Assembly: GCA_017307955.1 (NCBI GenBank) | Contig: JAFKFV010000016.1 | Span: 1 to 64,000 of the forward strand | Direction: 5' to 3' | Origin: Allobosea sp. | Lineage (GTDB): Bacteria > Pseudomonadota > Alphaproteobacteria > Rhizobiales > Kaistiaceae | DNA: 64,000 nt | In this document: piece after piece, positions 34,919 to 38,760 of the stretch | How the letters are laid out: every line of letters begins with the position of its first letter | How positions within the stretch are numbered: the first letter of the stretch is position 1 | Made by a program: the position numbers and the translations under genes | Notes under the pieces: model-generated | What the model was told of the DNA's origin: nothing | The model's database searches: none | Seen by the model: only the letters and a program-made list of their open reading frames with translations

Positions 34919-35020
34919 ATGTCGGGGACGGTTGAAACCGCTCCCCCAGCCAAGGCGCGGCCCTTCGGGGCCGCCCCGATTGCCGCTCCGGCCGTTCCCA
35001 CACCGGCCGGAGCGGCATGA
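34919..35020 (+). CDS. Possible 33-residue Ala/Pro-rich leader ORF
   Basis: ATG 34919 begins 2 bases after the permease stop and reads 33 codons rich in Ala and Pro (ETAPPAKARPFGAAPIAAPA). Its TGA overlaps ATG 35017, an upstream alternative start of the ligase gene (ATGA). The ORF spans two perfect hairpins. It may be a leader or coupling peptide, or meaningless. No ribosome site other than the end of the permease gene is visible. Confidence 0.25.
   Translation: MSGTVETAPPAKARPFGAAPIAAPAVPTPAGAA
34957..35016. other. Tandem perfect hairpins before ligase gene
   Basis: Hairpin 1 is GCGGCCC (34957-34963), loop TTCG, GGGCCGC (34968-34974): a 7-bp stem with a stable UUCG tetraloop in RNA. Hairpin 2 is GCCGCTCCGGCCG (34982-34994), a 9-base loop, then CGGCCGGAGCGGC (35004-35016): a perfect 13-bp stem. 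Neither is followed by a T-run, so they are unlikely to be ordinary terminators. They may stabilise or process the mRNA between permease and ligase. Confidence 0.6.
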
Positions 35021-35052
35021 ACCCACCTCCCGCGATACCCGAAGGAACGACC

Positions 35053-36417
35053 ATGACCGGCACGATGACGCTGAAGGAACTCGAAGCCGCGATCGCCGCC
35101 GGCACGATCGACACCGTGATCGTGGCCTTTCCCGACATGCAGGGGCGCCTCGTCGGCAAGCGCTTTACCGGCGCGTTCTTCCTCGACAGCGCCATCCACG
35201 AGACGCATGCCTGCAACTATCTGCTCACCGTCGACATCGACATGGAGCCGGTGCCGGGCTACCAGGCCGCGAGCTGGGAAAAGGGCTATGGCGACTTCGT
35301 CCTGAAGCCCGACATCGCGACGCTGCGGCGCATCCCCTGGCTCGAGGGCACGGCGCTGATGCTCGCCGATGTCTGCGACCATCACGGCGAGGAGCTGGCG
35401 CACAGCCCGCGCGCGATGCTGAAGGCGCAATTGAAGCGGCTCGCCGAGCGCGGCATGTCGGCCTTCTTCGCCTCGGAACTCGAATTCTACGTCTTCGACG
35501 AGACCTTCGAGAGCGCCTCGGACAAGCGCTGGCGCGAGCTGAAGACGATGGGGAACTACATCGAGGATTATCACATCCTCCAGACGACCAAGAACGAGCC
35601 GCTCCTCAGGGCGATCCGCAACGGGCTGATGGCCGCCGGCATCCCGGTCGAGAACTCCAAGGGCGAATGGGGGCCGGGCCAGGAGGAGGTGAACATCCGC
35701 TATGCCGAGGCGCTGACGATGGCCGACTGGCACGTCGTCATGAAGAACGGCATCAAGGAGATCGCCCATCTGCAGAACCGCTCGGTCACCTTCATGGCCA
35801 AGTGGCGCTACGACCTCGCCGGCTCGTCCTCGCATATCCACTCCTCGCTCTGGGACCAGAAGGCGAAGAAGCCGCTGTTCATGGACGAGAAGGATCCGCT
35901 CGGCATGTCGGCGACGATGAAGTCCTGGCTCGCCGGCCATCTGACGCTGGCGCCGGACTTCACCTATTTCCTCGCGCCCTACATCAACTCCTACAAGCGC
36001 TTCCAGGTCGGCACCTTCGCGCCGACCAAGGCGGTCTGGTCGGTCGACAACCGCACCGCCGGCTTCCGCGTCGTCGGCGAGGGCAAGTCGGTGCGCACCG
36101 AATGCCGCATCGGCGGCGCCGATCTCAATCCCTACCTCGCCTTCTCCGCCCTGATCGCCGCCGGGCTGCACGGCATGGACGAGAAGCTGGCGCTGGAGCC
36201 GACCTTTTCCGGCGACGCCTATGGCGCCTCCGGCGTCCGCGAAGTGCCGAAGACCTTGCGCGATGCCCTCGCCGCGCTCGACGGCTCGGCCGTGATGCGC
36301 GCCGCCCTCGGCGACGCCGTCGTCGATCACTATCTGCATACCGGACGCTGGGAGCAGTTCGAATACGACCGCCGCGTCACGGACTGGGAGTTGCAGAGAG
36401 GGTTCGAGAGGTATTAG
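35053..36417 (+). CDS. Glutamine synthetase family protein (gamma-glutamylamide ligase-like)
   Basis: 454 residues of the glutamine synthetase fold, in the group that includes PuuA and other glutamate-amine ligases rather than ammonia-assimilating GlnA. Seen: PDMQGRLVGKRFTGAFFL, FFASELEFYVFDE (metal Glu), WGPGQEEVNIRYAEA, SSSHIHSSLWDQKAKKPLF (metal His), NSYKRFQVGTFAPTKAVWS, RTECRIGGADLNPYLAF. The ATG 35053 start is chosen because GAAGGA at 35041-35046 sits 6 bases before it; ATG 35017 is possible. Expected reaction: ATP-dependent joining of L-glutamate's gamma carboxyl to an amine. The neighbours (permease, alcohol and aldehyde dehydrogenases, amidohydrolase) suggest an amino alcohol such as ethanolamine. 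Confidence 0.87.
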   Translation: MTGTMTLKELEAAIAAGTIDTVIVAFPDMQGRLVGKRFTGAFFLDSAIHETHACNYLLTVDIDMEPVPGYQAASWEKGYGDFVLKPDIATLRRIPWLEGTALMLADVCDHHGEELAHSPRAMLKAQLKRLAERGMSAFFASELEFYVFDETFESASDKRWRELKTMGNYIEDYHILQTTKNEPLLRAIRNGLMAAGIPVENSKGEWGPGQEEVNIRYAEALTMADWHVVMKNGIKEIAHLQNRSVTFMAKWRYDLAGSSSHIHSSLWDQKAKKPLFMDEKDPLGMSATMKSWLAGHLTLAPDFTYFLAPYINSYKRFQVGTFAPTKAVWSVDNRTAGFRVVGEGKSVRTECRIGGADLNPYLAFSALIAAGLHGMDEKLALEPTFSGDAYGASGVREVPKTLRDALAALDGSAVMRAALGDAVVDHYLHTGRWEQFEYDRRVTDWELQRGFERY

Positions 36418-36420
36418 ATA

Positions 36421-36460
36421 AACACACACCGTGTAGTTGACACACACACTGTTTGTGATA
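36421..36460. promoter_or_regulatory. Candidate promoter/operator of the PIN module
   Basis: Immediately after the ligase stop lies a stretch of alternating ACAC and GTGT elements: ACACCGTGT (36426-36434), GTGT-N5-ACAC (36431-36443) and CACA-N5-TGTG (36445-36457). TTGACA at 36437-36442 could be a -35 hexamer; no well-spaced -10 is seen. Short repeated inverted half-sites like these are usual for autoregulated toxin-antitoxin operons. A GGAGAGGAG ribosome site follows at 36475-36483. Confidence 0.5.
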
Positions 36461-36490
36461 GCCTTTCCATCCTTGGAGAGGAGCCCATGC

Positions 36491-36934
36491 ATGAGCAAAT
36501 ATGATCCGCTTGAGCAGCATCTTGCCCGCCAGCCGAGGCAAGAGCTGCCCATGACGTTCGAGGAGATCGAAGCCGTCATTGGCTTTGCGCTTCCCCCATC
36601 ATCGCGCACGCACCGGGCCTGGTGGAGCAACAATCCCAGTAACAACGTAATGACGAAAGCTTGGCTTGCTGCGGGATATGAGACGGAACAGGTCGACCTC
36701 GAAGGTCGAAAGCTCATCTTTCGACGCACTGCGCCACAAACAAAAGCATCAGCGCCTGAGGACGCGCGCAGCCCCGAGCCGAAACCGCGCAGGCGCCACC
36801 CACTCTTTGGATGGATGAAAGGGACATTCACGATCGCTCCAGGCACAGACCTCACGGAGCCGGCCGACCCTGAATGGGCCGACATTGCGTGGGGTCCTGA
36901 GAAGAAGGACGAGGCGGGGAAAGACGCAGCGTGA
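36491..36934 (+). CDS. DUF7662 protein with Phd/VapB-like C-terminal tail, probable antitoxin
   Basis: 147 residues from ATG 36491, 7 bases after GGAGAGGAG. Residues ~1-75 match the DUF7662 pattern: KYDPLEQHLARQ, MTFEEIEAVIGFALPPSS, HRAWWSNNPSN, TKAWLAAGYETEQVDLEGR. A proline/basic linker leads to a tail, LFGWMKGTFTIAPGTDLTEP and ADPEWADIAW, that closely resembles the toxin-wrapping end of Phd/VapB-type antitoxins (FGxMKGTxTIxPGTDLTEP). No AbrB, ribbon-helix-helix or Phd DNA-binding domain is present, so DUF7662 would have to replace it. Hand-counted GC is about 52-58%, below the flanks, suggesting transfer. It overlaps the PIN gene by 4 bases (GTGA), the usual antitoxin-toxin coupling. Confidence 0.75.
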   Translation: MSKYDPLEQHLARQPRQELPMTFEEIEAVIGFALPPSSRTHRAWWSNNPSNNVMTKAWLAAGYETEQVDLEGRKLIFRRTAPQTKASAPEDARSPEPKPRRRHPLFGWMKGTFTIAPGTDLTEPADPEWADIAWGPEKKDEAGKDAA

Positions 36935-37344
36935 CGGATCTCCTGCTCGACACCTGCGCGGCGCTCTGGATATCCGAGAGCGCCGCATTGGCCCAGGCCG
37001 CGGAAGATGCGCTCGACCGTGCGGCAGACCAGGGAGCCCCGATTTTTGTTTCCCCCATCACCGCGTGGGAGATCGGCCTTCTGACGGCAAGAAACAAACT
37101 CTCGCTGCCGATGTCGCCACAGAACTGGTTCGCGCGCCTCATGCGCGCACCCAATCTTCGCCTCACCGAGCTTGCGCCTGTCATTCTGCTGGATTCATGC
37201 TTTCTCCCAGCCAGACCACCGCGCGACCCGAGCGACCGCATCATCATTGCGACCGCTCGCGCTCTCGACTTGACGATCGTCACGCGAGACCGGCTCATCC
37301 TCGGCTATGCTGAAGCAGGGCATGTTCGTGCCCTCGCCTGCTGA
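36931..37344 (+). CDS. PIN domain toxin, VapC-like
   Basis: 137 residues from GTG 36931. PIN nuclease fold of the Sll0205/VapC-like subgroup: LLLDTCAALW (first acidic residue), SPITAWEIG (conserved Glu), DPSDRIIIATARALDLTIVT followed by RD (the remaining acidic residues). All catalytic acids appear intact. Such proteins cleave RNA, often tRNA or rRNA, and are held inactive by a co-expressed antitoxin. The partner upstream is a DUF7662 protein instead of a standard Phd/VapB. Together the pair splits the ligase gene from the aldehyde dehydrogenase gene. Confidence 0.88.
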   Translation: MTDLLLDTCAALWISESAALAQAAEDALDRAADQGAPIFVSPITAWEIGLLTARNKLSLPMSPQNWFARLMRAPNLRLTELAPVILLDSCFLPARPPRDPSDRIIIATARALDLTIVTRDRLILGYAEAGHVRALAC

Positions 37345-37356
37345 AAGGCAATTTCG

Positions 37357-38760
37357 ATGAACGCACCCGTCTTCAAGATCGTCACGCCCGTCGACGGCTC
37401 CGTCTATGCCGAGCGGCCGCTTGCCAGCCAAAGCGAGGTGCTCGCCATCCTGGAGCGGGCCCGCGTTGCGCAGCGCGCCTGGCGCAGCTCGTCCATGGCC
37501 GAGCGGCAGAAGATCGCCAGCGCCTTCACGGACGCCATGGTGGCCGAGAAGGACCGCGTCGCCGAGCTGCTCGCCTGGCAGATGGGCCGTCCGATCCGCT
37601 ACGGCCATGGCGAGATGCGCGGCTTCGAGGAGCGCGCGCGCTACATGATCGACATCGCGCCCTCCGCCCTCGCCGATATCGATGTCGGGCCGAAGGAGAA
37701 CTTCAAGCGGTATATCCGCCGCGAGCCGTTCGGCGTCTGCCTCAACCTGCCGGCCTGGAACTATCCCTATATGACGGCGCTCAACGCCGTGCTGCCGGCG
37801 ATCCTCTCCGGCAACACCGTCGTCATGAAGCATTCGAGCCAGACGGCGCTGGTCGCGGAACATTTCGCGGCCGCCTTCGCCAAGGCCGGGCTCTGGCAGG
37901 ACGTGTTCCAGTTCGTGAACATGTCGCATGAGGTCACCGACCGCGTCATCCGCTCCGGCCTCGTCGACCAGGTCGGCTTCACCGGCTCGACGGCCGGCGG
38001 GCGGCACATCATGGCCTCGGTCGCCGGCGCGCCGAATTTCCCGGCGACGACGCTGGAGCTCGGCGGCAAGGATCCGGCCTATGTGCGCCCCGATGCCAAT
38101 CTCCCCTTCGCGATCGAGAACATCGTCGATGGCGGTTTCTTCAATTCCGGCCAGTCCTGCTGCGCCATGGAACGCGTCTATGTCCATGAGAGCGTCTATG
38201 ACGCCTTCGTCGAGGGCGCGGTGGCGACGGTGAACGCCTACAAGCTCGGCAGCCCGACCGATCCGGCGACGACGCTCGGCCCGGTCGTCCGCGCCTCGGC
38301 GGCCAAGTTCATCAAGGACCAGCTCGACGAGGCCGTCCATGCCGGCGCGAAGCCGCTGATCGACCCGTCGCGCTTCCCGGAAGCCGCCGAGGGCACGGCC
38401 TATCTGGCGCCGCAGGTTCTCGTCGATGTCGACCATTCGATGCGCTTCATGATGGAGGAGACCTTCGGCCCGGCCTTCGGCATCATGAAGGTCTCGTCCG
38501 ACGAGGAGGCGGTCGCGCTGATGAACGATTCGCCCTTCGGCCTCACCGCCGCGATCTGGACCGAGGACCTTGAGGCGGCCGAGAGCATCGGCGACCGCAT
38601 CGAGACCGGCACGGTCTATATGAACCGCTGCGATTTCCTCGATCCCGCTCTGCCCTGGGTCGGCGTCAAGCAGACCGGCCGCGGCGCGACGCTTTCGCGC
38701 GTCGGCTACGAGCATCTGACGCGGCCGAAGGCCTTCCATCTGCGCCTCAGCGCCAAATAG
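37357..38760 (+). CDS. NAD(P)-dependent aldehyde dehydrogenase
   Basis: 467 residues of the ALDH superfamily. Seen: LNLPAWNYPYMTALNAVLPA (cofactor-binding region), FTGSTAGGRHIM, TLELGGKDPAYVRPDA (catalytic Glu), FFNSGQSCCAMERVYVHESV (catalytic Cys), EETFGPAFGIMKV and ESIGDRIETGTVYMNR. It should oxidise an aldehyde to the acid in the cytoplasm. Paired with the iron alcohol dehydrogenase 58 bases downstream, it would carry an alcohol group through aldehyde to carboxylate. It has an AAAGG ribosome site in the 12 bases after the PIN gene stop. Confidence 0.92.
   Translation: MNAPVFKIVTPVDGSVYAERPLASQSEVLAILERARVAQRAWRSSSMAERQKIASAFTDAMVAEKDRVAELLAWQMGRPIRYGHGEMRGFEERARYMIDIAPSALADIDVGPKENFKRYIRREPFGVCLNLPAWNYPYMTALNAVLPAILSGNTVVMKHSSQTALVAEHFAAAFAKAGLWQDVFQFVNMSHEVTDRVIRSGLVDQVGFTGSTAGGRHIMASVAGAPNFPATTLELGGKDPAYVRPDANLPFAIENIVDGGFFNSGQSCCAMERVYVHESVYDAFVEGAVATVNAYKLGSPTDPATTLGPVVRASAAKFIKDQLDEAVHAGAKPLIDPSRFPEAAEGTAYLAPQVLVDVDHSMRFMMEETFGPAFGIMKVSSDEEAVALMNDSPFGLTAAIWTEDLEAAESIGDRIETGTVYMNRCDFLDPALPWVGVKQTGRGATLSRVGYEHLTRPKAFHLRLSAK

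What the first reader, a model, noticed from the sequence alone, without database searches (positions are those of the whole stretch)
36491..37344. PIN toxin paired with a DUF7662 protein that ends in a Phd/VapB-type tail: candidate new antitoxin architecture
Seen: two genes overlapping by GTGA, repeated ACAC/GTGT half-sites upstream, an intact PIN nuclease, and a first protein with a DUF7662 N-domain and a tail reading LFGWMKGTFTIAPGTDLTEP. Known: Phd/VapB antitoxins end in a similar FGxMKGTxTIxPGTDLTEP segment that blocks a PIN toxin, and normally begin with a Phd, AbrB or ribbon-helix-helix DNA-binding domain. Inferred: DUF7662 takes the DNA-binding place, giving an apparently undescribed antitoxin class.
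Basis: partly seen in the sequence, partly recalled or inferred. Interest (0 to 1): 0.75.

Follow-up and report, generated by a model that had tools for sequence, protein, structure and literature searches.

The report
VapBC-type pair with DUF7662 antitoxin
This is a bacterial toxin-antitoxin gene pair in which a PIN-type RNA-cutting toxin is apparently held in check by a protein that joins a known toxin-blocking tail to an uncharacterised domain (DUF7662), which looks like a new kind of DNA-reading head for such antitoxins.

Summary
The 147-aa protein is DUF7662 (Pfam PF24698, E 9e-18) plus a C-terminal tail, and it overlaps a PIN protein with its acidic residues intact. Across 126 distinct DUF7662 matches, all 94 with the tail have a PIN gene next to them. 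Of 32 without a detected tail, 30 lack this PIN type. A profile built only from DUF7662 tails, searched in 385 genomes, found 12 non-DUF7662 places. Eleven are short Phd/YefM- or VapB-like antitoxins ending in this tail, and ten of those have PIN next. DUF7662 is predicted with high confidence as a small H-E-H-H-H-E-E fold resembling winged helices (weak Z). Upstream regions carry dyad operators of two classes (ACAC...GTGT and ATAGTTAC...GTAACTAT), absent from Phd/VapB loci that share the tail. Operator class co-varies best with residues 52 and 54, at the start of the predicted recognition helix. Other DUF7662 proteins carry different tails and precede other PIN families. No paper held mentions DUF7662. 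Verdict: a type II, VapBC-like system with an undescribed antitoxin head; a new variant of a known kind. Toxicity, neutralisation and DNA binding are untested.

The parts
36422..36457 (+). Predicted operator: two ACACACAC-N2-TGT copies 18 bp apart (36422-36434, 36440-36452); the second lies in an imperfect palindrome CACACACACTGTTTGTG (36441-36457) overlapping a TTGACA at 36437-36442
   Evidence: sequence; repeats; ACACACA in 30 and ATAGTTA in 27 of 94 homologous upstream regions against shuffle means 4.6 and 1.0, and 0 of 12 tail-sharing Phd/VapB loci
36475..36483 (+). Ribosome-binding-site-like GGAGAGGAG before the ATG at 36491
   Evidence: sequence; inference
36491..36934 (+). Antitoxin gene, 147 aa: DUF7662 domain, linker, neutralising tail
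36500..36730 (+). DUF7662 domain (residues 4-80), predicted winged-helix-like DNA-binding head; predicted recognition helix residues 53-60 (36647-36670)
   Evidence: Pfam, AlphaFold2 pLDDT 94-98 per ten-residue block, VIA Z 5.4 to RepE and 4.7 to CtsR, operator covariation at 52 and 54
36791..36886 (+). C-terminal tail (about residues 101-132), consensus FGxMKGTxTIxxGxDLTxPAxPEW, predicted to bind and inhibit the PIN protein
   Evidence: tail profile searches, alignment with Phd/VapB tails, confidence rise in read-through model
36931..37344 (+). PIN-domain (VapC-type) toxin gene, 137 aa, GTG start overlapping the antitoxin stop
   Evidence: Pfam, invariant acidic residues, PIN half of the homologous read-through model matches VapC structures at Z 10-12

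Best explanation
This is a type II, VapBC-like toxin-antitoxin operon. The second gene makes a PIN ribonuclease toxin. The first makes an antitoxin of two modules. Its C-terminal tail (about residues 104-132), the same kind of segment that ends Phd/YefM- and VapB-type partners of PIN toxins, lies on the PIN protein and blocks it. Its N-terminal DUF7662 domain is a winged-helix-like DNA-binding head that reads dyad operators (ACAC...GTGT or ATAGTTAC...GTAACTAT) next to the promoter and so autoregulates the operon. If the labile antitoxin is lost, the PIN protein is freed and cleaves RNA. Shown here by sequence analysis: domains, gene order, obligate tail-PIN linkage, tail relation to known antitoxins, conserved dyads and their covariation with the head. 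Inferred: nuclease activity, neutralisation, DNA binding, autoregulation, RNA target.
For: DUF7662 and PIN domains. Tail-PIN linkage 94 of 94; no detected tail: 30 of 32 without this PIN, and the two exceptions (L026, L182) carry divergent tails visible by eye. Tail profile hits in 385 genomes: 12 non-DUF7662, 11 of them short antitoxin-like proteins (Phd/YefM or VapB/PSK type), ten followed by PIN; one more in a family relative. PIN acidic residues invariant. Winged-helix-like model. In a read-through model of homologue L101 the tail blocks reach pLDDT 96 and 92, against 73, 87 and 78 for the window protein alone. Upstream dyads: 6-bp 114 against 30.5 +/- 6.4. Operator words present with DUF7662 heads, absent in 12 Phd/VapB-head loci with the same tail. 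Positions 54 and 52 best track operator class after stratifying by PIN identity: 0.24 against mean 0.007, sd 0.05.
Against: No experiment. Winged-helix matches are weak (best Z 5.4; Foldseek found none at E 0.001). The read-through model compares different proteins, and neither coordinates nor predicted aligned error were available, so tail-PIN contact is not directly seen. Operator covariation is controlled only by PIN-identity strata, not by a full phylogenetic model. About a quarter of upstream regions hold neither operator word (23 of 91). Pfam matches of some Phd-like proteins are below the gathering score.
Confidence: 0.86

Rival explanations
1. A toxin-antitoxin pair as above, but DUF7662 is not the operator reader: it is a sensor, stability or RNA/protein-binding module, and regulation is by something else.
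For: Winged-helix matches are weak and many winged helices bind protein or RNA. DUF7662 also occurs as short stand-alone proteins without PIN and inside longer proteins. In L178 the region after DUF7662 looks by eye like a second (VapB-like) domain, though Pfam found nothing there.
Against: Upstream dyads track the head, not the tail or toxin, and their class co-varies with residues 52 and 54 at the predicted recognition helix.
Confidence: 0.12
2. The pair is a domesticated regulator or RNase of the neighbouring glutamine-synthetase-like / aldehyde dehydrogenase operon rather than a free toxin-antitoxin module.
For: 30 of 91 loci lie directly behind this glutamine-synthetase-family gene, 27 of them with the aldehyde dehydrogenase next; GS and PIN identities correlate, r 0.75 in 22 loci.
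Against: Sister genomes keep the two flanking genes side by side without the pair (spacer 56 bp in the nearest relative); other relatives hold remnants; 61 of 91 loci were not found behind this gene.
Confidence: 0.05
3. The tail resemblance is convergent or chance and the PIN protein is an inactive or non-toxic relic.
For: The tail is only about 30 residues; no solved structure with this tail was found by sequence.
Against: Independent genome searches retrieve almost only PIN-antitoxin proteins with the tail; active-site acids are invariant; tail and PIN are never apart in the copies counted.
Confidence: 0.03

Closest known systems
Phd/YefM-PIN toxin-antitoxin pairs (PF02604 antitoxin with VapC-type PIN)
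   Same: Upstream small antitoxin, downstream PIN toxin, the same C-terminal FGxMKGTxTI..DLTxP tail
   Different: The N-terminal domain is DUF7662, not Phd/YefM; operators ACAC...GTGT / ATAGTTAC...GTAACTAT instead of the TATGGTCA...TGACCATA-like sequences seen by eye upstream of several Phd loci
VapBC with VapB/PSK-type antitoxins (PF07704/PF09957-like)
   Same: PIN toxin; some of these antitoxins end in the same tail (L165, L169, L173)
   Different: Different DNA-binding head
PIN-associated antitoxin families predicted by Makarova et al. 2009 (PMC2701414): RHH, AbrB, PHD, COG2442/DUF433, COG2886, COG2880, COG1753, truncated MerR
   Same: Same kind of finding: a DNA-binding antitoxin family linked to PIN by gene neighbourhood
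   Different: No family resembling DUF7662 appears in the passages and tables read there
NetFlax network of toxin-antitoxin domains (PMC10440598)
   Same: Argues that antitoxin heads and neutralising tails are exchanged as modules
   Different: No DUF7662 node was seen in the passages read; supplements could not be opened

Membership tests
Type II VapBC toxin-antitoxin system | PIN-domain toxin with conserved acidic residues | tested here: met
   PF01850 E 6.6e-12; D7, E47, D99, D102, D120 invariant in 51 sequences
Type II VapBC toxin-antitoxin system | Small antitoxin gene upstream in the same operon | tested here: met
   4-bp overlap; adjacency in 94 of 94 tail-bearing copies
Type II VapBC toxin-antitoxin system | C-terminal toxin-neutralising segment related to known PIN antitoxins | tested here: met
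   tail profile hits to Phd/VapB-type antitoxins; binding itself not tested
Type II VapBC toxin-antitoxin system | Antitoxin DNA-binding head binds its own operator | tested here: inconclusive
   conserved dyads and residue covariation but no binding experiment
Type II VapBC toxin-antitoxin system | Toxin inhibits growth and is rescued by the antitoxin | not testable with these tools
   needs expression experiments
Phd/YefM antitoxin family (PF02604) | N-terminal Phd/YefM domain | tested here: not met
   Pfam finds only DUF7662 in the protein even at E up to 10; NCBIfam none
AbrB/MazE-type or ribbon-helix-helix VapB families | AbrB or RHH head | tested here: not met
   no such match at E up to 10; predicted order H-E-H-H-H-E-E is neither
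DUF7662 (PF24698) | Match over curated cut-off | tested here: met
   64.3 bits against 26
Winged-helix DNA-binding domains | Fold | tested here: inconclusive
   topology fits; best VIA Z 5.4 (RepE), 4.7 (CtsR); Foldseek E above 0.3

The most novel reading that the evidence does not exclude
DUF7662 is a previously unrecognised, exchangeable DNA-binding head of antitoxins: besides the tail described here it is joined to at least three other, apparently unrelated C-terminal segments, each followed by a different PIN type (L009/L014/L015; L027; L178), so it would rank beside Phd, AbrB and ribbon-helix-helix heads as a hub of toxin-antitoxin evolution.
Probability: 0.6. Interest if true: 0.65.

Novelty: new variant of a known kind. 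Interest (0 to 1): 0.6.

Why it matters
It gives a function to a domain family without one, adds a new head to the small set of DNA-binding modules known in PIN antitoxins, and offers a clean case of module exchange: one tail and toxin type with three kinds of head, and one head with several tails and PIN types. Such antitoxins match no NCBIfam model, so many pairs are probably missed in annotation. The predicted operators and residues 52-56 make the DNA-reading claim directly testable.

Tried and rejected
PDB sequence searches with the antitoxin, PIN and tail profiles found nothing usable. NCBIfam and PADLOC gave no match for either protein. Foldseek against PDB and viral models gave no significant hit for the antitoxin. 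The sigma-70 promoter scan found no promoter, although TTGACA stands at 36437-36442. A first read-through alignment (A4) misplaced antitoxin C-termini and was replaced by A5. My first adjacency count (93 of 114) missed decayed copies (L074, L110) and divergent PINs and was replaced. Literature searches found no paper naming DUF7662 and no description of this architecture; only open-access full texts were searchable. A Bosea VapBC paper (PMC8522696) was checked only by term search and gave nothing on antitoxin heads.

Full report
Observation. The first (36491-36934) encodes 147 aa with DUF7662 at residues 4-80 (E 8.9e-18) and the tail LFGWMKGTFTIAPGTDLTEPADPEW. The second (36931-37344) encodes a 137-aa PIN protein (E 6.6e-12). 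They overlap by GTGA. NCBIfam and PADLOC recognise neither. The genome holds this DUF7662 gene once and 12 PIN matches.

Gene linkage. DUF7662 proteins were collected by family search in 385 class genomes and 398 phylum genomes, by protein search in 61 relatives and by a genome-contig scan (80 loci, mostly Alphaproteobacteria). Counting each DUF7662 sequence once, 94 of 94 with a detectable tail have a PIN gene directly next; 30 of 32 without one do not, and the two exceptions (L026, L182) have divergent tails such as HPLFGIWVGKVTLIPGYDYTKP. The contig scan used tail words and is biased toward tails. In the two family searches alone (40 distinct places), by my count, 13 have tail plus PIN, 6 have another tail and another PIN type, and 21 have no PIN.

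Tail. A profile was built from 46 DUF7662-protein tails only. In 385 class genomes it found, besides DUF7662 proteins, 12 places at E up to 0.02. Eleven are C-termini of short proteins that are Phd/YefM-like (L163, L164, L166, L167, L168, L170, L171, L174) or VapB/PSK-like (L165, L169, L173) by sequence; ten have a PIN gene right after. Of those submitted, Pfam confirms PhdYeFM_antitox for L166 and L171 above cut-off, with sub-threshold matches for L130, L163 and L164; L169 has sub-threshold PSK_trans_fac and VapB_antitoxin matches. A family relative adds L130, a Phd-like protein plus PIN (E 1.1e-5). In an alignment of 14 such tails, two glycines, the D and the P are invariant. The tail is therefore a shared module, not a chance likeness.

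Toxin. D7, E47, D99, D102 and D120 are invariant in 51 sequences, as expected of a PIN active site (established knowledge). In the read-through model of homologue L101 the PIN half matches solved VapC proteins at Z 10-12, for instance Shigella VapC (5ecd), Mtb VapBC15 (4chg), Mtb Rv0301 (3h87) and Rickettsia VapBC2 (3zvk).

Head. AlphaFold2 with 77 sequences gives DUF7662 pLDDT 94-98 per ten-residue block, with H5-13, E18-22, H23-30, two short helices, H53-60, E63-69 and E74-79: a winged-helix order. VIA-align's best rows are the RepE winged helix (Z 5.4) and CtsR (4.7). Foldseek found no significant match. Z below 8 is common, so the fold call is suggestive only.

Tail on toxin. Complexes could not be modelled directly. 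In homologue L101 both genes lie in one frame, and reading through its stop codon gave a 294-residue model with pTM 0.73 and pLDDT 96 and 92 in the two tail blocks, against 73, 87 and 78 in the window protein alone.

Operator. In 89 upstream regions exact dyads are in excess: 281 five-base dyads against 121 +/- 13 in shuffles, and 114 six-base against 30.5 +/- 6.4. Two motifs dominate: ACACACTGTGTGT-like, as in the window, and ATAGTTACTGTGTAACTAT-like. ACACACA occurs in 30 and ATAGTTA in 27 of 94 regions (shuffle means 4.6 and 1.0). Neither occurs in the 12 Phd/VapB-head loci that share tail and PIN; several of those show TATGGTCA...TGACCATA-like sequences by eye. One DUF7662 protein with a different tail and a different VapC (L178) has AATAGTTCCGTAACTATT upstream, read by eye. 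Antitoxin positions 54 (M or I), 52 (N or S) and 64 track operator class. After comparing only pairs of similar PIN identity, 54 and 52 lead with excess 0.24 (mean 0.007, sd 0.05), and 56 and 48 also rank in the top five. These cluster at the start of the predicted recognition helix. For example, L051 and L045 have PINs 74% identical but opposite operator classes and opposite residues there. I read this as the head choosing the operator.

Breadth of the head. L009 (two copies in one genome, the second also seen as L018), L014 and L015 carry DUF7662 with a tail ending FTVSREQIYDxxGRLTGGPxD followed by another PIN (Pfam E 2e-7 to 8e-10; closest NCBIfam TIGR00028, below cut-off). L027 has a long tail followed by a third PIN type (E 2.6e-5). 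L178 has a VapB-like looking tail followed by a fourth (E 6e-4, below cut-off). Other DUF7662 proteins stand alone or lie in larger proteins.

Place. The pair sits between a glutamine-synthetase-family gene and an aldehyde dehydrogenase gene. In the nearest relative (ALDH 97% identical) these genes are adjacent with a 56-bp spacer; in the window they are 939 bp apart. Thirty of 91 loci lie behind the same gene, 27 with the dehydrogenase after them. Some relatives keep remnants: G399's 129-bp spacer ends in a stretch that reads as the PIN C-terminus, and G410's spacer keeps only the tail. The pair is thus an accessory module, gained or lost repeatedly, at a favoured site.

Comparison. The system works like VapBC. 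By the features tested it belongs to the PIN type II systems but not to the Phd/YefM, AbrB or RHH antitoxin families. Makarova et al. 2009 (PMC2701414) list RHH, AbrB, PHD, DUF433, COG2886, COG2880, COG1753 and MerR among PIN partners; NetFlax (PMC10440598) describes modular exchange. No held paper mentions DUF7662. I rate it a new variant of a known kind.

Noticed in passing
window 35017-38760; L202-L231: The pair is inserted between a glutamine-synthetase-family gene and an aldehyde dehydrogenase gene; 30 of 91 homologous pairs lie behind the same gene across many alphaproteobacterial families, sister genomes show the empty junction (56 bp), and others show remnants.
   Followed up: partly
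L009, L014, L015, L027, L178: DUF7662 joined to other C-terminal segments and followed by other PIN types: probably further antitoxin types.
   Followed up: partly
L197:1501-2196 (Paracoccus aestuarii plasmid p9146): DUF7662 followed by a region that looks by eye like a GIY-YIG nuclease domain (not checked by profile), next to a BrnT/BrnA toxin-antitoxin pair.
   Followed up: no
L198:1207-2457 (Thermococcus barophilus plasmid pTBMP1): DUF7662 inside a 416-aa archaeal plasmid protein directly after a gene annotated as ribonuclease J.
   Followed up: no
L008, L010: DUF7662 proteins without PIN share a C-terminal segment LTIAEAKAGLAxxFGxxxxxIEITI of unknown role.
   Followed up: no
L163, L166, L167, L168, L171 upstream regions: Phd-headed loci with the same tail show TATGGTCA/TGACCATA-like sequences upstream, possibly their own operator.
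   Followed up: no
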